Positions 1 to 64,000 of a stretch of DNA of 64,000 nt are shown piece after piece (the first letter of the stretch is position 1; each line of letters opens with the position of its first letter). The translations under genes and the position numbers were made by a program. Source of the stretch: Basidiobolus meristosporus CBS 931.73 (lineage: Eukaryota > Basidiobolomycota > Basidiobolomycetes > Basidiobolales > Basidiobolaceae). Below the pieces are notes generated by a model. That model was not told where the DNA came from. It searched no databases and saw nothing but the letters and a program-made list of their open reading frames with translations. Location: positions 23,900 through 87,899 of the forward strand of contig MCFE01000357.1 in assembly GCA_002104905.1 (NCBI GenBank), written 5' to 3'.

Positions 1-369
1 ATAAGGAACTTATCAATGTACAGTGATAATAGTCAAGCTGTTGTTTATTCATAAAGAGGATCAGTGTTTATATCTTTGTAGAAGTAATATAGCTGTAACA
101 CTATGTAAAGAGGGTTTCTCAATATTCAGGAGCATTCCGTAACAGTTTCAGGGTTAGTACATAAGGTTTGGTAAAAAGTGTCAATTTGATCTTTACTATA
201 GGGGAATAATCATAGGATCATAGATGTGAAGGAACTGGCAAAGTTGGGACTGCAAAGAAGTCCTACAGTGACCTAGACTAGTCTAGAATTGTTCAGTAAA
301 TTTTTAGCTGATGAATGATACCAAATAGTCCAATATTTCTACAAATCCTTGCAGGATTCACTTTGACCA
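1..369. other. AT-rich sequence without a recognisable gene
   Basis: No supported reading frame is present. The stretch is AT-rich and lies left of a truncated copia LTR. It is probably older transposon debris, but I cannot assign it. Confidence 0.3.
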
Positions 370-7582: not shown

Positions 7583-9684
7583 TTACCCACTACATCCTTG
7601 GGTATTCCACATATATCTTAAATCAAAAAATACTATGGCCCCCAGCATACCAACCTCTACCAACACACACACCTGCTGCAATTGACACACTTCTATCACC
7701 TCAACTTTACGGCTTTTTGGTGTGATGCTTGCAAAGTAGCCATATATCTTACATTGCTGGTAACATATACATCTTGCAAACAGATGCTTGGCTGCTGCCA
7801 CTTCTGCCATGAATACCTCTTGAATATCAGCAAAGAACTTCTTGGTATTTAACCAATATATTCCTTCTCCCTGCTGGATTCTAGTCCCCTTTATAAGTGC
7901 ATTCTGGCTCTTTTTTGTGTGAATTTCATATTGAATGGTGTAGAAATTGGCTTGTGACCAAGTGAGATCCAGCATACCTTGGTAGAGTTTTCCTAATAAA
8001 AATTAGTTACTTGTTGCATCCAACCCAACCTTGCATTACTTAACTGATTACCCACACATTGGGGCTGCTTAGCTTCTTAATGACATAGGCATAGATGTCT
8101 CCATGTGCACATCTGTCCTCAGTATTTTCCAACTTTTCCTGGCTGTCCTCCATGCACCAATTCATCACATCCATGACAGATTTGAAGGTAATATTCTTGA
8201 TGAAAATGGGATATGGTAGTACCTGCGACTTGACTTGTCTTCCTATCTCCCCACACATCTGCTCCATAGGAAACTCCCAAAAGGTGAAGCAAGGTCCAAT
8301 ATTCTCAATACACCAAGTAAGATGGAATAGCAAATGGATACAGCAGTGGCAGAGATCTATGCATTCAGCTTTATGTTTATAGTATAGCCACTCAAATCCT
8401 GTCACAAACATTTTGCACAATAGCTGTAGATGTGTCAAGCTGGCATTGGTGATCTGCATCTTGATGATTATTCCTGCAAAGTCCACATATGACTCCCAAT
8501 GCTTCCAATGTACTCTTGGTAGCAATAGCTTCAGAAGGCCACTTGAATAAATACATATCCAGTTCATCCAGTCCTTGCACTAGTATTGTCACATGGGCAT
8601 ATGAATGTTGGTTGGAGCCTGTGAGAGGTAGCTATGGTAGCAGATACTTTGTAATATCTTGCCAATTATTTCAAATTTCTTTAGTATTTCAAAGAGCTAT
8701 TTAGCTTGAGATCCCCCACGTACAACTGGGTCATCAGTATAGGGATATTTTTGAAAAACTATTACATTGCTCCCGGTGGAAAGTTTTTGCTGCAACAGAT
8801 ACCCTCTATCCTAAACATCTCTGGTTTACAATTAATTCCATATTATTGCCAATGGCTTATAGCTTGCCAACTTTGCTGCAATTGCATTCTGCCATTTGTA
8901 TGTTCTCTCTGTGGAAAGATTATGCTCTTAGTGTTGGTGGTTGGGTAATAATAGTGTGTGTGAGTTATGAAGTAAGTCCCCTGGATCTCACACATTTGAC
9001 AGCAATGCATGCCATTGTGCCCAGAAAAGCTGGCTATCTTGCTGATGCCTGGTGTATATCCAATGCAGATAATAATATGAGCTTTTACATGATGGCCATT
9101 TACTGTTATCCTACTGGAAAGCATGCAAAATTCATCTAGCAATGGATACAGGTAGCTATCCAGGTTGGATTGTGATTTAGGCCCAGATACCAGTGAGACC
9201 ACCATAAGATTTTGGCACTGATACCGTAAGATAGGCAGCAAAATCAGGTTGATGAGATTCAGTTGCCAGCAGGATCTGCTGGTGGAGTACTTGTTTGATG
9301 AGTATCCATCAAGTGCCAAGGCAAAGGCAAGGTCATACATACCTTCAAAGTGGCCCTTGCTTCTTAGCTGTTTGTAGTGTTTGCCATCAAGCATATCTGA
9401 TACGTTTGTGTTTGATTGATACTGAGTGGGGTACTTTATAGATTCACAATATTTGTCAGACTGCATGAGCTTGTTTATATGTGGTATTACTGTAATATAT
9501 CTGGAGTGTGAGCAATGTTTTCCCCCAATGGTGGTGGATTCCCGCCAAGTTGGACACCTTGCAGTGGTGGCATTTCCAGATGTGAATGCCATGTAATTGT
9601 TAACACATGCTGGCATCAGGACAGTCTCTGGATCATATGTTGCCAGCCATATGGCAGTTTTCCACTTATACTATATACATGGTA
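7583..9684 (-). pseudogene. CACTA-type (Transposase_21/TNP2-like) transposase, middle and C-terminal part, broken
   Basis: Minus-strand frames at 8843-9616, 8392-8592, 8040-8567 and 7583-7975 read in this order as one transposase interrupted by frameshifts. The 8843-9616 part holds LALDGYSSNK, a CWQLNLINL block, VSLVSGPKSQSNLDSYLYPL and a CQMCEIQG cysteine pair. These match the catalytic-region layout known from TNP2-like transposases. The 8040-8567 part has the family's C-terminal region, with GPCFTFWEFPMEQMCGEIGR resembling the usual 'fWafPMEr..G.l' motif. The complete copia at 9690-14368 is inserted in this relic. Mobilisation is not possible in the present state. Confidence 0.7.
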
Positions 9685-34657: not shown

Positions 34658-34716
34658 TGGGATAGTATGGCTAGGATAGTATCGCTAGGATAGTATCGCT
34701 AGGATAATATTGCTAG
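34658..34716. repeat. 14-bp tandem repeat
   Basis: The unit GCTAGGATAGTATC occurs at 34670-34683 and 34684-34697, with a variant at 34698-34711 and partial units on both sides. It lies between the eIF3m start and the MZT1 stop. Confidence 0.8.
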
Positions 34717-54938: not shown

Positions 54939-56125
54939 TGGTTGGGGAAAATGTACAATGTAGAAGATATATCGTGCCCGGAAGGGTGGCCGGGGTATTT
55001 ATATGGCGGCCACAGGTGGAGGTTGGATAGTGTTGGGTGCTTAGCCGATGACGTTAGTGATTGCGGGGTTGCGGAAACAGGTATCAACCCACTCATTGTT
55101 CCGAGGAGGGGAGAGGGGAGAGGAGAGTGGTGTTGGTTCGCGGACCAATGACACCCGAGGATCATGTAGCCCATTGTTTCAGGAACGTGCGAAATGCCTT
55201 CAACCTTCTCGATTGATGGCTCCTTTGGCCCGGATAAGGGGGAGGTCATTCGGTCGAGCTGAGGTCGGTGATTGGAGCAGACCGAGAGCGATTAATAATG
55301 TACCCACCCCTAATCTCGCTCAGGTGACTGGTAATCGAGAAACGCTTGGTTGTTCATAATTCGCGGCCATCATTTGCCATTTGGACAAAAGTGGATTCAG
55401 CCTTGCTTTGAGCTTGAAAGCATGTGCTTGTTGGCTGTTTTCTAGGCATTTTAGAGATATACTTTGCATATGGGCCATGAATCTAACCGTACTAGAGCCA
55501 AAGCATAAGTTATTGATCTCTGTGGTTACGTTGGATGAGACATGAAATATCCTTAATGACTTCAAATAGCATTCGTCCATTATTTATTACTTGGTGACTT
55601 GTGTTGGTTGACCTACAAGTATCTCTAATAGGTGAAGAAGATACCGGCCGCAATCTTGATCTTGTTTGATATGAGTAGCCTGGAACCAGCAATGTGGCTA
55701 TGAACTCTGACAACCGCTTTTACTCAATCAGCCTTTCCTAACCCACCAGCGTTGTTGTAGCGTAATTGTGAATACTAGAAGTAACTTGGTGAACTGAAAG
55801 CGTGCTTCATGCTAATTTTAAGAACAATCAATAACTATGATACTTTTGGTTAATTGTCTGACTTGTATTGGTAAAGGTTTATCAAAGCACCAAGGGTTAG
55901 GGGAAACGGTTGCCAACATGTGGAATCTTTATTTTAGGTAAATCACAGAAGCCTGTGCTACTTTTGCTGCTTTTTACAATAGCATGGATTTGTGTGGGGT
56001 TAGTATGTAGATAAGAAAGAGCAAGTGAAAGGTACCTAAGCCACTACTCAAAAGAAAAAGTGAAAGAGGGAGTGATAAGAATGTGGACCATCAATACTGA
56101 TTGGCATAATACTATTGCAGGATTC
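54939..56125. other. Subtelomeric intergenic region, no supported gene
   Basis: Promoter side of the APSES gene, then AT-rich sequence without a supported frame up to the copia LTR at 56126. Composition shifts from island-like to transposon-like near 55.3-55.8 kb. Confidence 0.4.
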
Positions 56126-56559: not shown

Positions 56560-57946
56560 CTGTTGGAAGTGATTGGGAGAACAAGTAGATAATGTGGTTT
56601 TCACTTAATGATTTATTCAATGTAAAAGTAGTATTTATACCTTTACATGGTCTTGGCATGACAAGCACCCAGAATAAGTTAAGGAAGGTCCCAAGAACAT
56701 GTGTGCAAAGTTTGGGGCTGTTTGGACAACTTTGAGAATTTTCATGTTCTGAGTACCTTGTATTTTGGTGAAAATATTCTATGTATATCCCAACAAGGGA
56801 TTTGGTCAGTATTTCCAAGGCCTTGAAGATAATGATCTAAGTGACTAAGTTAGGTAAATATTTGGGTGGAATTACAAATTTTTAAAATACTCCCACTGAG
56901 CTAAATGCTCATACTGACTAGTCCTAATATTGACCTAAGATATTCAAATGTGTCTCTAGCTAATAGTTTGGTGAATATGTCTGCAATCATTCATTTGAAG
57001 GATAGTAAACTAAGCTAACTAAGTTATTCACTCTAGCTTCACATATGAAATGATGTCTAATATCTATGTGCTTAGTTCTAGCATGAGAGGTTGGATTTCT
57101 ACCTGATTGTATACATCCTTGATTATCTTGAAATAAAGTAATAAGCATTTCTTGACATAGGCCTAAATCTGTAAAAAGCTTTCTTCACCATATTGCTTCT
57201 TTTGTAGCTTCACAGGCTGCCATATACTCTGCCTCTGTGGTGGAAAGTTCTACAGTTGGTTGCTTTCTTGAATTCCATGAAATTGCTCCTTGACAGTAAA
57301 GAAAGGTGCATCCTGTGGTGGATCTTCTGTTGTCCAAGTTTTGTTCCCAATCAGCATCAAAGTATCCCACAAGATCCTGTCCTGAATCCTTATAAGTGTA
57401 TCTTAAGCAGATATCAGTAGTTCCTTTCAGATATCCAAAAGTCCGCTTAACTGCTGCAATATGACCAGATCCATAGTTCTGATTATGCTGGCTGACAGCT
57501 CCCACTAAATATGAGATATCTGGATATGTTCCAAGCATGATATACATCAGACTGCTGACCATAGATTGATAAGGAAAGTCAGGGCTTTCAGATGGCACTA
57601 AGCTCTCCTGATTTGGTTGAGTTTTCACCAAGTTAAGGTTTGTCTCCATTGGGGTAGCTGCTGGTTTACAGTCTTCCATGTTGTACTTCTTTAGAATATC
57701 TTGAATATACTTGGATTGGCATAGGGTGATAGGCTAGATACTTCTGTCTATGGAGAACTTTATCCCTAAGTGGTAACTGAGCTCCACTAGATCAGACATC
57801 TTGAACTCTTTAGATAGGCTGGATTTAGTCTTTTGAATGTTGCTAGGTTATTGACAGCTATAATAAGAGCATCCACATATAGAGCTAATAGAGCTGGATT
57901 TGCTCTATCTGGCTTATAGCATATACTATAATCAGCTTTACTCCTT
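56560..57946 (-). mobile_element. Inverted copia 3' part: LTR (56560-56882), polypurine tract, RNase H and RT
   Basis: The LTR in reverse lacks its outer 20 bp or so (it begins TGTTGGAAGTGATTGGG). CTCCCACTGAGC at 56886-56897 is the reverse of the polypurine region. The minus strand then encodes RNase H (57185-57679: TTEAEYMAACEATKEA, FDADWEQ) and late RT. It stops near 57944, where a LINE has inserted. Frames are broken. Confidence 0.85.
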
Positions 57947-59906
57947 AGGGGGAGACAGTTACCAACAGGTAAAATCTATATTTCAGTTGAAACAAAGAAG
58001 CCAGCACTACAGTTGTAGCCTTGATGCAAGAGTTTGTAGATGAGGGGAGTTTTAGGTAAGTTTACAAGAAGTGAAGATAGTTCTTCAGTGCTCAAGACAC
58101 TGTTCAGTGGGAAGGGGGGTGGCAAGAGGGGTAAGAATGATTTGTGAACAACATTAATGAGGGGAATATGATAAGGATTGATATTCATCATGAAGGGAGT
58201 GTGCTGCTTCAGATATTGCTGCCAAAGATCTGTCAAGTACTTCAGGTAGGCCAGCTTGGGATTTTCTGACTGCAGAATATAGTGAGCAAACTTCTTGACT
58301 TCAGGATCTCCAAGTATAGTTCTCCAGCAGGAGCCAGGTGTAGTGTGGTGTGTTCTCTTCCAGGCCTTGATCAGTGGGTTGTTGCAGTGGTGAAGTCTGA
58401 GATACAATCTGGTTCTAAGGTAGAGTAGTCTGATCTTGTAGGGCATAAACCCAAAAGCACCAAGAATAGCATGTCTGTAGGGGCATTCAGGCAGATGAGG
58501 CACCAGGGATGTAATGGACCAGACTGCAAACTTGTCAAGTTTAGTGCAGTCTCTGGCAGTAAGAGAGAGAAGTGGTAAGCCAAATTCCAGGACAGGGAAG
58601 ACAAACTGCTTGAGTAGAAGGAGGCAGCTGGGAGCTGAAGTTGTAGGAGGAGTTACAGCCAGTAGATTGTGGAATGCTTGTCTTGCCAGGATAATTCTCT
58701 TCTACAGGTGTGCTCCAGAGTCTAGTCCAGTAGGGAGGAAAGGAAAGCCAAGATATGTAGCAGAAACTTGAGCCACTAGAGTGCAGTTGTCTAAGCTGAT
58801 AGGACAACCCAAAGGTACTGTCTTTGCAGTGGAAAGCTGGAGATTATTCTTTTGCAGATACTGTTGGATTGACTGGGAATCTTGTTGCACATTGGAGGAG
58901 GATATTCTGATGTCATCAGCAAAGAGAGTAACCAGGCAGTCCGCTGAGAGTCTTGGGAAGTCATTTAGGAAGATGGCAAACAGTATAGGACCAAGCACAG
59001 AGCCATGAACCACTCCATTAGGAACTGAGAACACAGCTGATAGCTCACTTGGGTGCAGAATTCTTGCTTGTGGATCCAGAAACAGAGACCTGACAAGGAG
59101 GGTGAGGGAGGTACTGGAGAAGCATTGCAACTTGGACCAAAGCAGATTTCTGTCAACTGAATCAAAGGCCTTAGTAATATCAAACAGAACGGAGGGATAC
59201 TTGCACTGGAGAGAGTGATCTTGGCTAAGTGTAACTGCATATTCCAAGGAGAGGCCAGGAACAAAGCCAAACTGTGCAGGGTGAAGCTTGAGGGAGTCAG
59301 AGTAGAGCTCCTGAGCAAGCAGAAGCTCAAACACCTTTCTGCAGGTGGGCAGCAGAGATATTGGCCTGTAGGAGCTAGGATCCAGGTGCTTTCCTTTACC
59401 CTGATACAGTGACAGAAACATTGGCAAAGGACCATTCCTCAGGAGTAGAAAGCTGGGCTGAGCATTGCTGAAACAGTGGAAGCAGAAGAGTAGACATGGC
59501 CTTGGTACTAGTCTTCAGAAGCTCATAGGAGATTGTGTCCACACCTGGAGCAGTAGAGTTGGGAAGCTTCTTGAGCACATTCTGGGCTCTCTCTTGATCA
59601 AGTGCAAGTGGGATTGGCAGAGTCTTGAAGTCAGGATGAAAGCCAGGAGTAGAGTACTGCTTTGTAGAGAAGAAGATGTTAGCCAGCTGTTCTGTTGAGG
59701 GTAACTTCCTGGAAGAGGGCCTCATTGCCCTGTAGAGTCTTGATACTGTTCTTGTTATAGAGTTGGAAGATTGCAGAGGCAAAGAACTCAGAATATGGTC
59801 CCAGAGCTGAGTATGCAGAGAGTGGTGAGTTGCCTTGGAGTGGTGTATGGCTGTCAGGAGGAGTTTCTCTGTTTTTGGGTTAGGGAAACTCAGGTAGCTT
59901 TGCTGC
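57947..59906 (-). mobile_element. LINE (non-LTR) retrotransposon copy 1, 5'-truncated
   Basis: The minus strand runs from 59906 to 57947. Frames 59782-59396, 59427-58702, then 58503-57976 carry RT with SYRPISLLPTCRKVFE, AQFGFVPGLSLE, FDITKAFDSVDRN, VLGPILFAIFLNDF and LFADDIRIS. A Cys/His-poor C-terminal region follows and ends in STEI-stop. The 5' part (ORF1, endonuclease) is missing. The 3' end reads GTCTCCCCCTAA and has no poly(A). It lies inside copia RT sequence, with roughly 50 bp of copia missing at the site. It has a frameshift near 59400 and a TAG at 58702-58704. Confidence 0.88.
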
Positions 59907-60090
59907 TTATTGGTGATTGTTTGAGTCCATATGGAGATTTTATAAGCCTGCAGATCAAATGGGGGTAATATTGGTCAACAAACCCATCAGGCTGGTTGAT
60001 ATACATGTTCTCATCAAGTTCACCATTCAAAAATGTAGTTTTTATATCCATTTGATGAATAAAAAGCTGATATTTGGCTGCAATAGCCAA
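59907..60090 (-). mobile_element. Copia RT piece separated by the LINE, ending at a telomeric seam
   Basis: Minus strand: [37 protein letters not shown] and [14 protein letters not shown] match copia RT. This continues the copia at 57946 across LINE copy 1. It ends at GGCTGCAATAGCCAA, where the complete copia continues further, and is followed at once by TTAGGGTTAGGG. Confidence 0.85.
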
Positions 60091-60102
60091 TTTAGGGTTA
60101 GG
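60091..60102 (+). repeat. Two interstitial telomere repeats
   Basis: TTAGGGTTAGGG joins the broken copia to the 3' end of LINE copy 2. It is in the same orientation as the terminal telomere. Confidence 0.9.
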
Positions 60103-60878
60103 GGGGGAGACAGTCACCAACAGGTGAAATCTTTATTTCAGTTGAAACAAAGAAGCCAGCTCTACTGTTGTAGCTTTGATACAAGAGTGTGTAGCTGAGG
60201 GGAATTTGTAGGTAAGTTAATAAGGAGTGATGATAGTTCTTCAGTGCTCAAGACACTGTTCAGTGGGAAGGGGGGTAGCAAGAGAGATAAGAATGCCTTG
60301 TGAACAACATTAATGAGGGGAATGTGATAAGGATTGATATTCATCATAAAGGGAGTATGCTGCTGCAGATATTGCTGCCAAAGGTCTGTCAAGTACTTCA
60401 GGTAGGCCAGCTTGGGTTTTTCTGACTGCAGAATATAGTGAGCAAACTTCTTGACTTCAGGATCTCCAAGTATAGTTCTCCAGCAGGAGCCAGGTGTTGT
60501 GTGGTGTGTTCTCTTCCAGGCCTTGATCAGTGGGTTGTTGCAGTTGTGAAGACTGAGGTATAATCTGGTTCTAAGGTAGAGAAGTCTGATCTTATAGGGC
60601 ATAAACCCAAAAGCACCAAGAATAGCATGTCTGTAGGGGCATTCAGGCAGATGAGGCACCAGGGAGGTAATGCACCATACTGCAAACTTGTCAAGCTTAG
60701 TGCAGTCTCTAGAAGTAAGAGAGAGAAGTGGTAAGCCAAATTCCAGGACAGGAAAAAAAAAACTGCTTGAGTAGATGGAGGCAGCTGGGAGCTGAAGTTG
60801 CAGGAGGGGTAACAGCCAGTAGCTTGTGGAGTGCCTGTCTTGCCAGGATAATTCTCTTCTACAGGTGTGCTCCAGAGT

Positions 60879-62930
60879 CTAGTCCAGTAGGAAGGAAAGG
60901 AAAGCCAAGATATGTAGCAGAAACCTGAGCAGGTAGAGTGGAGCTCTCCAAGTTGATTGGAGAGCCCAAAGGTACAGTCTTTGCAATGGAAAGCTGGAGA
61001 TTATTCTTCTGCAGATACGGTGGATGGTCTGGGAGTCTTGCTGCATATTGGAGGAGGATATTCTGATGTCATCAGCAAAGAGAGTAACCAGGCAGTCAGC
61101 TGAGAGTCTTGGGAAATCATTCAGGAAGATGGCAAACAGTATAGGACCAAGCACAGAGCCTTGAACCACTCCATTAGGAACTGAGAACACAGCTGATTGC
61201 TCACTTGGGTGCAGAATTCTTGCTTGTGGATCCAGAAACAGAGACCTGACAAGGAGGGTGAGAGAGGTACTGGAGAAGCATTGCAACTTGGACCAAAGCA
61301 GATTTCTGTCAACTGAATCAAAGGCCTTAGTAATATCAAACAGAACGGAGGGATACTTGCACTGGAGAGAGTGATCTTGGCTAAGTATGACTGCATATTC
61401 CAAGGAGAGGCCAGGAACAAAGCCAAACTGTGCAGGATGAAACTTGAGGGAGTCAGAGTAGAGCTCCTGAGCAAGCAGAAGCTCAAACACCTTTCTGCAG
61501 GTGGGCAGCAGAGATATTGGCCTGTAGGAGCTAGGATCCAGGTGCTTTCCTTTATCCTTGTACAGTGGCAGAACATTTGCAAAGGACCATTCCTCAGGAG
61601 TAGAAAGCTGGGCTGAGCATTGCTGAAACAGTGGAAGCAGAAGTGCAGACATGGCCTTGGTACTAGTCTTCAGAAGCTCATAGGAGATTGTGTCCACACC
61701 TGGAGCAGTAGAGTTGGGAAGCCTCTTGAGCACATTATGGATTCTCTCTTGATCAAGTGCAAGTGGGATGGGCAGAGTCTTGAAGTCAGGATGAAAGCCA
61801 GGAGTAGAGTACTGCTTTGTAGAGAAGAAGATGTTAGCCAGCTGTTCTGTTGAAGGTAACTTCCTGGAAGAGGGCCTCATTGCCCTGTAGAGTCTTGATA
61901 CTGTTCTTGTCATAGAGTTGGAAGATTGCAGAGGCAAAGAACTCATAATATGATCCCAGAGCTGAGTATGCAGAGAGTGGTGAGTTGCCTTGGAGTGGTG
62001 TATTGCTGTCAGGAGGAGTTTCTCTGTTTTTGGGTTAGGGAAACTCAGGTAGCTTTGTTGCAGGGCTGAAACAATGGATTCCCATTTTCTTGAGGTAACA
62101 GCAGTAGTCTTGCATGACAGTGAGAGGGAGGCAGACACCAGAATCAGATGCTTCACAAAGAGCCAGGCATAGTTGAGATCATCTGGCAGAGAAAGTAGCA
62201 AACTGGCAAGCTTCAAGTAGTTCCCAAAGTCTTTCTTCTGATTCTTGGTAGCTTTGTGGGTGAGCACAGTAAGTTTTGGCAGCTTCTTCTTCACAACTGG
62301 TTGCATAGAAAGGGACCAGGCTGGGTGGTCAGAGGCTCTCAAGGATCCTAGCTCAGCTCCAGAGAATTGCTTGACTTCATTCACAAAGTAGAGGGCAGCA
62401 GCAGAAGGGCAGATCCAGTCAACACATCTTTTCTCAGATTGAGCACCTAGTGCTAGCAGGTGGCTTTCTCTCAGGCAGTTCAGTAGGAATGTAGACCTTG
62501 GCTTCATTCTTGCAGTCAGAGTAGTCTTGTTCTCAGGATGGGGAATGTTGAGATCTCCAAGCAATATAACAGATGTTGATATAGATTGTTGGTATTGCTG
62601 AACCTTCTGGCATATAACTTGCACTTCCTGAAGGGGGAGACTTGGAGGCAGATAGCAGAGCACCAGACTGATAGTTGGCAACTGGAGAGCAGCACAGTAA
62701 GGGGAGTAAAGAGGAACACAGAGCTGAGGAGTATTGATGGTAGAAGAGATGAAGCAGATAGAGGAGGTATTCTTTGTTCTAGGAGTAGAAAAGCAATATA
62801 GATTAGTCAAAAGTATAGAGGGTAGCTGGACATCAATCAAACACAGGAGGGAAAATCTTGAAAGAAGTCTCTCTAGAGTTGGTCTTGATGGCTGTATGCT
62901 GTTGCAGTTAGGCAACAGAACTTCAGGTAG
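60879..62930 (-). pseudogene. LINE copy 2 ORF2: endonuclease-like plus reverse transcriptase
   Basis: An open frame directly after the ORF1 TGA and in the same frame; no ATG occurs within the first 120 or so codons. The endonuclease-like part has NCNS near its start, VILLGDLNIPHPE (GDxN), RCVDWICPS and ASDHPAW (SDH). The position expected to hold the catalytic Glu after VQ is Leu (LIDVQLPS, codon 62823-62825). RT at about residues 400-640 has YRPISLLPTCRKVF, FDITKAFDSVDR, GVVQGSVLGPILFAIFLND and FADD. A 1-bp loss near 61015 shifts the frame and ends it at 60879. Function: reverse transcription of element RNA. Confidence 0.85.
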
Positions 62931-63783
62931 TCAGGCAGAGGTTGTAGCTTCTTCAGAGGCAGCATTGACAATGTGACCTGCAGAGTCCCAGAGCTCTTCA
63001 AATGGTGCATCACTTAAGTCAGCAAGGAGGGAAATGGCATGGTTCTTGAGGAAGTATGCCACATCATAGGAGGGGGCTTGTCTCTTGATGGCAGCAAAGA
63101 AAGACAGAATGGCAACATGGGCTGGAGGCTTGTTGAACAGTAGAGAGTCAGAGGATTCAGATTCTTCAGGCACTATCTTGAAGTCAGTTTTCAGCCAGTT
63201 AAGGTTCTTCTCCACAAAGGCAACAAATGGGTCAGCAATGTTTTGGTCTAGGATAACCTCCAGAATCTTCCCTTTTCTCCAGGCCAGATTGACAATTCTT
63301 GAGAGCTGAATATTGCATGCCTTGAGTGCTTTCCTGATGTTGGAAATGGGAGTCCAGGGAACTTGCTTCAAGTACACCACAGTCCAGGTAGAAGCTGGTG
63401 GTAGGTTTGCTGGGGGCTTGTAAGTCCTTCTGTGTGGCAATGGAGCTGCAGTAGTCAGATTGGAGTCCACATTCTCAGTAGAGGGTTTGCTTGATGTGTC
63501 TTGCTGAATGGTACTGGAGCTGGATGTGCTGATTATTCTTGCTAGAACCTTGCCTGCATAAGTCTGAGGTATAGCTGAGGTGACTGTAGTGGTGGTGGCA
63601 GCTGGTGCAGGTGGAGAGGCAGAAACTGAAGCAGGAACTGAGGTCACCTGGGAGAAGGCAGTAGAAGCAGGTTTTCTGGGAGGAACAGAGTTCACTATCC
63701 AGTTGTTCTGTAAAACACTGGAGTAGCTTTTCTGTGGAACAGGATCTTGCTCTTGAACAGGAACAGAAACAGGAGGCTGGGGC
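62931..63783 (-). CDS. LINE copy 2 ORF1 (gag-like), 5' end fused to the telomere
   Basis: The frame is open from the telomere to a TGA at 62931-62933, about 284 codons within the element, with no ATG seen at its start. The N-terminal part is Pro/Ser/Thr-rich (VPVQEQDPVPQKSYSSV, SVSASPPAPAATTTTVTS). The middle part, TWTVVYLKQVPWTPISNIRK ... NLAWRKGKILEVILDQN, resembles the RRM-like domain of some fungal LINE ORF1 proteins. No CCHC knuckle is seen. The stop is followed directly by CTA. The frame continues upstream through the telomere as Asn-Pro repeats, so the natural start is missing or lies in lost sequence. Confidence 0.7.
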
Positions 63784-64000
63784 TTAGGGTTAGGGTTAGG
63801 GTTAGGGTTAGGGTTAGGGTTAGGGTTAGGGTTAGGGTTAGGGTTAGGGTTAGGGTTAGGGTTAGGGTTAGGGTTAGGGTTAGGGTTAGGGTTAGGGTTA
63901 GGGTTAGGGTTAGGGTTAGGGTTAGGGTTAGGGTTAGGGTTAGGGTTAGGGTTAGGGTTAGGGTTAGGGTTAGGGTTAGGGTTAGGGTTAGGGTTAGGTT
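63784..64000 (+). repeat. Telomere (TTAGGG)n, chromosome end
   Basis: 217 bp of uninterrupted TTAGGG units, about 36 copies. The last unit reads TTAGG before TT, probably a sequencing or assembly end effect. The G-rich strand runs 5' to 3' toward the window end, as expected at a right chromosome terminus. Confidence 0.97.

What the first reader, a model, noticed from the sequence alone, without database searches (positions are those of the whole stretch)
57940..64000. Terminal LINE with a CCCTAA-ended 3' terminus, oriented as if primed by the telomere G-strand
Seen: both LINE copies lack poly(A). On their own strand they end GTCTCCCCC(CC)TAA, and copy 2 continues CCCTAA. Both have the 3' end inward, and copy 2's 5' end meets the telomere array with no other sequence between. 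Established: in target-primed reverse transcription a DNA 3' end primes on the 3' end of element RNA. Telomere-associated LINEs are known elsewhere (TRAS/SART in Bombyx, MoTeRs in Magnaporthe, Zepp in Chlorella). Inference: an RNA ending in CCCUAA would pair with the 3' TTAGGG overhang, and extension would place antisense LINE on the G strand exactly as found here, with telomerase later re-capping the 5' end. This would be a LINE that adds itself to chromosome ends.
Basis: partly seen in the sequence, partly recalled or inferred. Interest (0 to 1): 0.92.

Follow-up and report, generated by a model that had tools for sequence, protein, structure and literature searches.

The report
Chromosome-end LINE arrays in Basidiobolus
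In a fungus that still carries a telomerase gene, a jumping gene (with a short companion element that shares its tail) sits in one-directional stacks at chromosome ends, apparently joined to broken or worn ends through a telomere-like tail and then capped again by ordinary telomere repeats.

Summary
The window ends a contig of Basidiobolus meristosporus. A 17-base LINE 3'-end pattern occurs 760 times, 699:61 by strand. Of 80 sampled copies, 31 lie on contigs of 100 kb or more: 31 of 31 are 3'-inward and 30 of 31 within 20 kb of an end (21% expected). Mapped ends show head-to-tail, 5'-truncated copies under caps of about 35 TTAGGG repeats. The 3' end is a hairpin, a C-run and a short CCCTAA stub, then diverse, mostly non-telomeric DNA: 263 C6 copies reach TAA, 59 TAACCCTAA, 6 a third repeat. 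Stub and flank share letters in 13 of 15 LINE-body junctions, but only in 17 of 31 overall (46% simulated). A TERT domain is present. A ~527-bp SINE-like element (210 head matches) shares tail, place and orientation. Best reading: an APE-type LINE adds itself, and its SINE-like partner, to broken or eroded ends by CCCTAA-guided priming, and telomerase re-caps them. Whether LINE RNA or telomerase RNA templates the stub is open.

The parts
55900..55979 (-). decayed 3' end of an older relative of the LINE (77% over 81 columns)
   Evidence: blastn of the LINE body against the window
57500..57947 (-). copia element, piece on the inner side of LINE copy 1 (the part tested)
   Evidence: 91-92% to four copia copies elsewhere in the genome, where it is continuous with the piece at 59911-60091 apart from about 50 bp
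57948..59906 (-). LINE copy 1, 5'-truncated, 3' end at 57948 (GTCT-C5-TAA)
   Evidence: 94.8% to copy 2; no TSD, about 50 bp of target missing
59911..60091 (-). copia piece between the two LINE copies, cut off at 60091 (rest of copia missing outward)
60092..60107 (+). stub TTAGGGTTAGGG plus extra Gs between broken copia and copy 2
60114..60127 (-). 3' hairpin TCACC-TGTT-GGTGA shortly before the C-run
   Evidence: five-base stem kept, loop varied, in 17 of 22 tail types listed, incl. the SINE-like element
60132..60137 (-). AATAAA (possible polyadenylation signal) about 25 nt before the C-run
   Evidence: sequence; function inferred
60099..63783 (-). LINE copy 2 (terminal), truncated at its 5' end by about 880 bp
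60162..62930 (-). ORF2 of copy 2 (APE-like endonuclease + reverse transcriptase) in two open frames, 60879-62930 and 60162-60878; an uninterrupted ORF2 frame exists elsewhere (L150, 922 aa)
62931..63783 (-). 3' part of ORF1 (a frame of 523 aa in L150)
   Evidence: position by correspondence with L150:8139-9710; inferred for the window copy
63784..64000 (+). terminal telomere array (TTAGGG), 35.8 copies, end of contig C599

Best explanation
An APE-type non-LTR retrotransposon of B. meristosporus extends chromosome ends. Its RNA ends in a hairpin plus a C-run (with or without CCCUAA). The 3'-OH of a broken or badly eroded chromosome end, carrying at most one or two TTAGGG units or only a few matching bases, primes reverse transcription of that RNA without needing a nick. 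This lays antisense LINE outward; the (often truncated) 5' end becomes the new end and telomerase caps it. Repetition gives head-to-tail, truncated arrays. A SINE-like element with the same tail is added the same way, presumably in trans. Shown: position, orientation, stacking, capping, short stubs, shared hairpin, a TERT domain. Partly supported: microhomology. Inferred: end-priming, trans-mobilisation, and which RNA (LINE tail or telomerase RNA) templates the stub.
For: 760 copies of the 3'-end pattern, 699:61 by strand; 5'-end query 40 of 40 scored matches on the minus strand. On contigs of 100 kb or more, 31 of 31 sampled 3' ends point inward and 30 of 31 lie within 20 kb of an end (21% expected); copia control, best 40 scored without the window's own, 16 plus / 23 minus. 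Stacked, variously truncated copies on C2 and two in tandem on C450. Telomere arrays sit directly on truncated or full-length elements. 74 distinct 15-mers after the stub in 80 junctions. Stubs short: perfect-match t=1-9 in 80 of 80; 263, 59, 6 genome-wide for C6 ends. LINE-body junctions: microhomology >=1 nt in 13 and >=2 nt in 9 of 15, against 46% and 18% simulated. Copy 2 joined to a truncated copia end. Shared 3' hairpin. TERT RNA-binding domain.
Against: Over all 31 junctions that could be scored, microhomology >=1 nt is 17 of 31, little above the simulated 46% (>=2 nt 12 of 31 against 18%); of the 16 SINE rows only 4 show any, and the LINE-body subset was singled out after the result was seen. 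In 3 of the 15 LINE-body rows all stub letters are native, so nothing need have been added. Stub length falls steeply but has no hard limit (6 of 263 with a third repeat; 7 of 149 longer than 9 nt in a selected set; imperfect longer tracts such as L121). Copy 1 is an internal insertion. Exceptions to place or orientation: C136 (42.6 kb in), C558 (about 98 kb from the nearer end) and C726 (10.3 kb from the right end, 3' end outward). The endonuclease keeps most of its active site. G after TAA is preferred both in LINE stubs (17 of 27) and before telomere arrays (64:41 G:A), which would fit telomerase making the stub. No RNA data.
Confidence: 0.7

Rival explanations
1. The element works like TRAS/SART or MoTeR: its endonuclease nicks TTAGGG arrays, it inserts within them, and long interstitial tracts are later lost by breakage, leaving short stubs.
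For: Endonuclease active site mostly kept. In Magnaporthe, interstitial tracts of more than 3 repeats are prone to break and MoTeRs have their 5' ends nearest the chromosome end (PMC7367193, passages). Fusarium FoTeRs typically keep 3-7 repeats at the 3' end (PMC12857005, passages).
Against: Flanks after the stubs are LINE, SINE, copia or unidentified DNA; only 6 of 263 C6 copies keep three perfect repeats; no poly(A) after the C-run in 80 of 80.
Confidence: 0.17
2. Arrays grow mainly by recombination between chromosome ends (break-induced replication of LINE/SINE blocks), the LINE being a passive passenger.
For: The best-scoring matches to the LINE ends are 98-99% identical; three flank 15-mers recur, accounting for 6 of 80 rows beyond the first of their kind.
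Against: 74 distinct flanks of 80 need many separate joinings, each with the same 3' terminus. The most frequent repeat (5 rows) is the SINE-like head, which can recur without copying.
Confidence: 0.07
3. Ordinary dispersed LINE whose end bias comes from assembly or selection.
For: Nearly all telomere matches read one way (7428 against 81), so assembled telomeres lie almost only at right contig ends, an unexplained asymmetry; three exceptions to the end pattern exist.
Against: Copies near left ends (C80; C979, C1257, C679, C598) have the opposite strand, so orientation follows the end; copia in the same assembly is on both strands.
Confidence: 0.03

Closest known systems
MoTeR1/MoTeR2 (Magnaporthe) and FoTeR (Fusarium)
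   Same: Fungal telomeric non-LTR elements; MoTeRs in head-to-tail arrays, 5' end nearest the chromosome end, TTAGGG between copies, truncated copies with de novo telomeres, a defective partner MoTeR2 sharing both ends (passages)
   Different: MoTeR1 has a putative REL endonuclease and telomere-like 5' repeats; FoTeR typically keeps 3-7 repeats at the 3' end and has 4-55 copies per genome (passages). Here the endonuclease is APE-type, stubs are mostly 2 repeats or fewer, there are hundreds of copies, and the partner is SINE-like
TRAS/SART (Bombyx)
   Same: LINEs tied to telomere repeats in a species with a TERT gene (SART1 paper, passages); APE-type endonuclease (recalled; a TRAS1 entry is among the PDB profile matches)
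   Different: They insert inside (TTAGG)n through a sequence-specific endonuclease, SART1 with poly(A); here no poly(A) and attachment to mostly non-telomeric DNA
HeT-A/TART/TAHRE (Drosophila; start of abstracts in the listing, and recall)
   Same: Addition to chromosome ends, 3' end inward, 5' truncation (recalled)
   Different: Drosophila lacks telomerase and the elements have poly(A) tails (recalled); here a TERT domain and TTAGGG caps exist
Stringent-type LINE/SINE pairs (UnaL2, ZfL2; PMC4176376, passages)
   Same: LINE and SINE share a 3' tail with a stem-loop
   Different: Known pairs are dispersed (recalled); here the tail runs into CCCTAA and the pair sits at chromosome ends
Endonuclease-deficient Penelope-like elements at telomeres (start of abstract in listing; rest recalled)
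   Same: Retroelements associated with telomeres
   Different: Different RT lineage (recalled); this element has an APE-like domain

Membership tests
telomere-associated non-LTR retrotransposon (broad kind) | non-LTR RT in ORF2 | tested here: met
   RVT_1 E=2.5e-25; LINE-1 ORF2p are the best PDB matches by profile and by fold of a relative's model
telomere-associated non-LTR retrotransposon (broad kind) | concentration at chromosome ends with one orientation | tested here: met
   30 of 31 within 20 kb of a contig end, 31 of 31 3'-inward; in the selected rows with known contig length, 29 of 30 and 29 of 30
MoTeR (and FoTeR, found by others with the MoTeR1 RT) | restriction-enzyme-like endonuclease, no APE domain | tested here: not met
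   N-terminal APE-like domain (below Pfam cut-offs in P0107; profile and fold matches to APE/L1 endonucleases). No separate REL model was searched; FoTeR's endonuclease type is not in the passages I saw
TRAS/SART | poly(A) 3' end and insertion within long telomere arrays | tested here: not met
   no poly(A) after the C-run in 80 of 80 and perfect stubs of 9 nt or less; the sample requires the C-run, so other 3' ends were not seen
HeT-A/TART | replaces telomerase | tested here: not met
   TERT RNA-binding domain over its cut-off; TTAGGG caps
HeT-A/TART | head-to-tail arrays, 3' end inward, 5' truncation | tested here: met
   C2 and C450 maps, two ends mapped
stringent-type LINE/SINE pair | shared 3' tail with hairpin | tested here: met
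   TCACC/GGTGA stem in LINE and SINE-like tails; evidence by covariation rests on one TTACC/GGTAA copy
stringent-type LINE/SINE pair | SINE mobilised by the LINE protein | not testable with these tools
   needs a retrotransposition assay
tRNA-derived SINE | tRNA-like Pol III promoter | tested here: inconclusive
   A- and B-box-like motifs seen by eye (consensus recalled) in the 527-bp unit; ARAGORN and Rfam found no tRNA
CR1/L2/Jockey LINE clades | RT phylogeny | not tested
   named hits include X-element and jockey RTs, no RNase H in the scan of P0107; no tree built

The most novel reading that the evidence does not exclude
A LINE and its SINE carry, in their RNA 3' tails, a working copy of the telomerase template (C-run plus UAACCCUAA) next to the RT-recognition hairpin, so the LINE enzyme acts as a second, telomerase-like end-healing machine in a telomerase-positive fungus; the SINE would be a telomere-specific SINE parasitising it.
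Probability: 0.3. Interest if true: 0.95.

Novelty: new variant of a known kind. Interest (0 to 1): 0.8.

Why it matters
It would show LINE-based chromosome-end growth beside telomerase in an early-diverging fungus, built on an APE-type LINE rather than the REL-type MoTeR, with a SINE-like partner at the same place. It gives hundreds of natural junctions in which hand-over between telomerase and a LINE can be studied, bearing on how Drosophila-type telomeres could arise. I found no report of it in the library searched (open-licence PMC papers only): of the papers listed for Basidiobolus + telomere + retrotransposon, one holds all three words, and its title is about 6mA in Mucorales; of the 9 papers found for SINE + telomere + non-LTR retrotransposon + chromosome ends + trans and the 13, none is about telomeric SINEs by title and start of abstract.

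Tried and rejected
Hard two-repeat limit: in the 80-junction sample no perfect stub exceeded TAACCCTAA, but genome-wide counts for C6 ends (263, 59, 6) show a steep decline, not a wall; I withdrew the claim. In a wider, selected set 7 of 149 stubs exceeded 9 nt.

EN target-site reading (TAA belongs to the target): in 12 of the 15 LINE-body junctions at least one stub letter is not native, in 3 (L077, L107, L144) all are, so it is disfavoured but not excluded. For copy 1 the AA is native and the T is not; a target-site duplication guessed by eye was rejected against four other copia copies.

Telomerase-made against LINE-RNA-templated stub: not resolved. C-runs of 8 or more occur only with stubs of 5 nt or less (12 of 48 against 0 of 32, p=0.0013), but G after TAA is preferred both in LINE stubs and before telomere arrays. 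C-run lengths may carry sequencing error. The telomere counts (64 C, 41 T before five TTAGGG) include restarts inside arrays (five contigs are in both lists) and leave out A and other phases.

tRNA search of the SINE-like unit: ARAGORN none; Rfam one match far below its gathering score, a snoRNA family. Microhomology counts rest on the 31 of 80 junctions whose flank aligned to my references; the 16 SINE rows gave 4 with any overlap, many with 1 nt of mismatch at the variable head of my single SINE reference.

Sampling: junctions were read for the first 80 of the 100 listed rows, of 760.
Full report
WHAT THE WINDOW IS. The window is bases 23900-87899 of contig C599 (length 87899) in an 89.0-Mb, 1311-contig assembly. 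A TAF4 gene in it is 95% identical over 71% of the query to a Basidiobolus meristosporus CBS 931.73 protein, and another contig has the length recorded for a contig of that strain (103055), so I take it to be that fungus.

ANATOMY. From the inside outward (+ strand): a decayed LINE 3' end (55900-55979), copia, LINE copy 1 (57948-59906, antisense), copia again (59911-60091), TTAGGGTTAGGG plus extra Gs, LINE copy 2 (60099-63783, antisense), then 35.8 copies of TTAGGG to the contig end. Four other copia copies show that copy 1 replaced about 50 bp of an otherwise continuous copia and made no target duplication; at its 3' end one T precedes native AA. Copy 2 follows a copia cut off at ...GCCAAT. 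Copy 2 lacks about 880 bp that other copies have at their 5' end, where ~100-bp tandem monomers and an internal AACCCTAACCCTAA are seen. On C450 one copy has an uninterrupted ORF2 frame (922 aa) and its outer neighbour an uninterrupted ORF1 frame (523 aa); no single copy with both was looked for.

GENOME-WIDE. TTGGTRACTGTCTCCCC occurs 61 times on one strand and 699 on the other (reversed control 0/0). Of its 100 listed rows I read the first 80 junctions, 75 minus and 5 plus. Of these, 31 lie on the 15 contigs of 100 kb or more: 31 of 31 have the 3' end inward from the nearer end and 30 of 31 are within 20 kb of an end (median 3.4 kb; 21% expected if uniform); the exception is on C136, 42.6 kb in. 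In the 301-bp 3'-end search (42 matches, 40 candidates scored, best first) 36 are minus and 6 plus; of the 30 with known contig length 29 are inward and 29 within 20 kb of an end. The exceptions are C558 (about 98 kb in) and C726 (10.3 kb from the right end, 3' end outward). The 5'-end search gave 40 of 40 minus. The copia control (best 40 scored, without the window's own) is 16 plus and 23 minus. The C2 end reads: telomere, LINE from body position 937, pieces of about 1000, 118 and 115 bp, about 2.5 kb without LINE match, then four SINE-type tails about 527 bp apart; C450 carries two long copies in tandem.

CAPS. Twenty array starts chosen from the telomere patterns lie 184-297 bp (median 217) from the contig end. 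In 8 of these 20 the LINE or SINE references match right at the boundary, in 2 more within the 350 bp read, and 10 have no match to them. Of 20 right ends of LINE-bearing contigs, 10 carry a telomere and 10 end without one. A TERT RNA-binding domain is found in two pieces at C880:173109-173423, one with an in-frame TAG in the six-frame reading.

THE 3' JUNCTION. Each sampled end is GTCT, a C-run of 4-12 (mode 6), then a prefix of TAACCCTAA, then other DNA; the sample is chosen by the C-run, so other 3' ends are not seen. Perfect stub lengths t=1..9 occur 5, 7, 19, 9, 8, 8, 12, 4 and 8 times; none longer, though a few rows (for example L101, L115, L121, L146) go on as imperfect repeats. For C6 ends genome-wide, 263 reach TAA, 59 TAACCCTAA and 6 a third repeat: about 2%, against caps of about 35 repeats. 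Of 80 junctions, 74 flanks are distinct. In 31 of 80 the flank aligned to my LINE or SINE references. Over these, stub and native sequence share at least 1 nt in 17 of 31 (46% simulated) and at least 2 nt in 12 of 31 (18% simulated). Split by type, 13 of 15 LINE-body rows share at least 1 nt and 9 of 15 at least 2 nt, but only 4 of 16 SINE rows share any; I made the split after seeing the result. The LINE-body pattern is that of a DNA 3' end pairing with a CCCTAA template; the SINE rows mostly join at its full 5' end, where my one reference copy is a poor guide.

WHO TEMPLATES THE STUB. For the LINE RNA: the hairpin TCACC-loop-GGTGA before the C-run is kept in 17 of 22 tail types (two of the other five look like false matches, three are broken stems), with different loops, in LINE subfamilies and the SINE-like element; copy 1 has TTACC/GGTAA. 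Stringent-type LINEs recognise such a 3' stem-loop (PMC4176376, passages). Long C-runs appear only with short stubs (12 of 48 against 0 of 32, p=0.0013). For telomerase: the base after TAA is G in 17 of 27 LINE stubs (22% expected, p=5e-6), and a like bias is seen before telomere arrays (G:A 64:41, 37% expected, p=8e-7), though those counts include restarts inside arrays. I give neither a clear lead.

THE PROTEIN. ORF2 has RVT_1 and APE-type endonuclease matches below Pfam's cut-offs; profile and fold searches find LINE-1 ORF2p first and AP endonucleases for the N-terminus (model of the relative P0003, mean pLDDT 78). In an alignment of 16 the lineage keeps the Asn, Asp and His positions but has Asp (3 of 3 readable: P0001, P0003, P0004) where the 9 other readable sequences have the metal-binding Glu; the residue roles are recalled. 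The endonuclease is thus kept but altered, leaving open whether it nicks.

THE SINE-LIKE PARTNER. A ~527-bp unit with A/B-box-like motifs (by eye) at its head and the LINE-type tail stands four times in tandem on C2. Its head pattern occurs 10 times on one strand and 200 on the other; of the 100 listed rows, 15 lie on contigs of 100 kb or more whose length I had, and 15 of 15 are oriented inward and within 18 kb of an end. C424 has plus copies at 143 and 671 and minus copies at 311576 and 312325, which looks like both ends; its length was not read. No tRNA was called.

COMPARISON. MoTeR and FoTeR are the nearest in behaviour; MoTeR1 has a different endonuclease, and both can have longer tracts. 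SART1 inserts within arrays. Papers were read as passages only; otherwise I saw listings with the start of abstracts. I therefore call it a new variant of a known kind: a telomere-associated LINE that appears to work like an end-adding element, without membership in MoTeR, TRAS/SART or HeT-A/TART.

Noticed in passing
G000, telomere pattern; contig right ends: Telomere matches read almost only one way (7428 reverse against 81 forward 24-mer matches), so assembled telomeres lie almost only at right ends of contigs; an assembly asymmetry I cannot explain.
   Followed up: partly
L149:1710-3336 and pattern: Tandem ~527-bp SINE-like element sharing the LINE 3' tail, terminal and in the same orientation; possible telomeric SINE.
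   Followed up: partly
full-length LINE 5' end, e.g. L041, L150: 5' UTR with ~100-bp tandem monomers and an internal AACCCTAACCCTAA of unknown role.
   Followed up: no
telomere arrays: C before the first TTAGGG is over-represented (64 C against 41 T), hinting at a G 3' of the telomerase RNA template; counts include restarts inside arrays.
   Followed up: partly
window 34660-34716: 14-bp tandem repeat GGATAGTATCGCTA, about 4 copies.
   Followed up: no
window 8843-9670, minus strand: Transposase_21 (tnp2) fragment.
   Followed up: no
G000:C136:42598 (+), C558:97681 (+), C726:58991 (+): LINE 3' ends far from both contig ends (C136, C558) or pointing outward (C726); possible internal insertions or misjoins; not read beyond the junction or locus.
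   Followed up: partly
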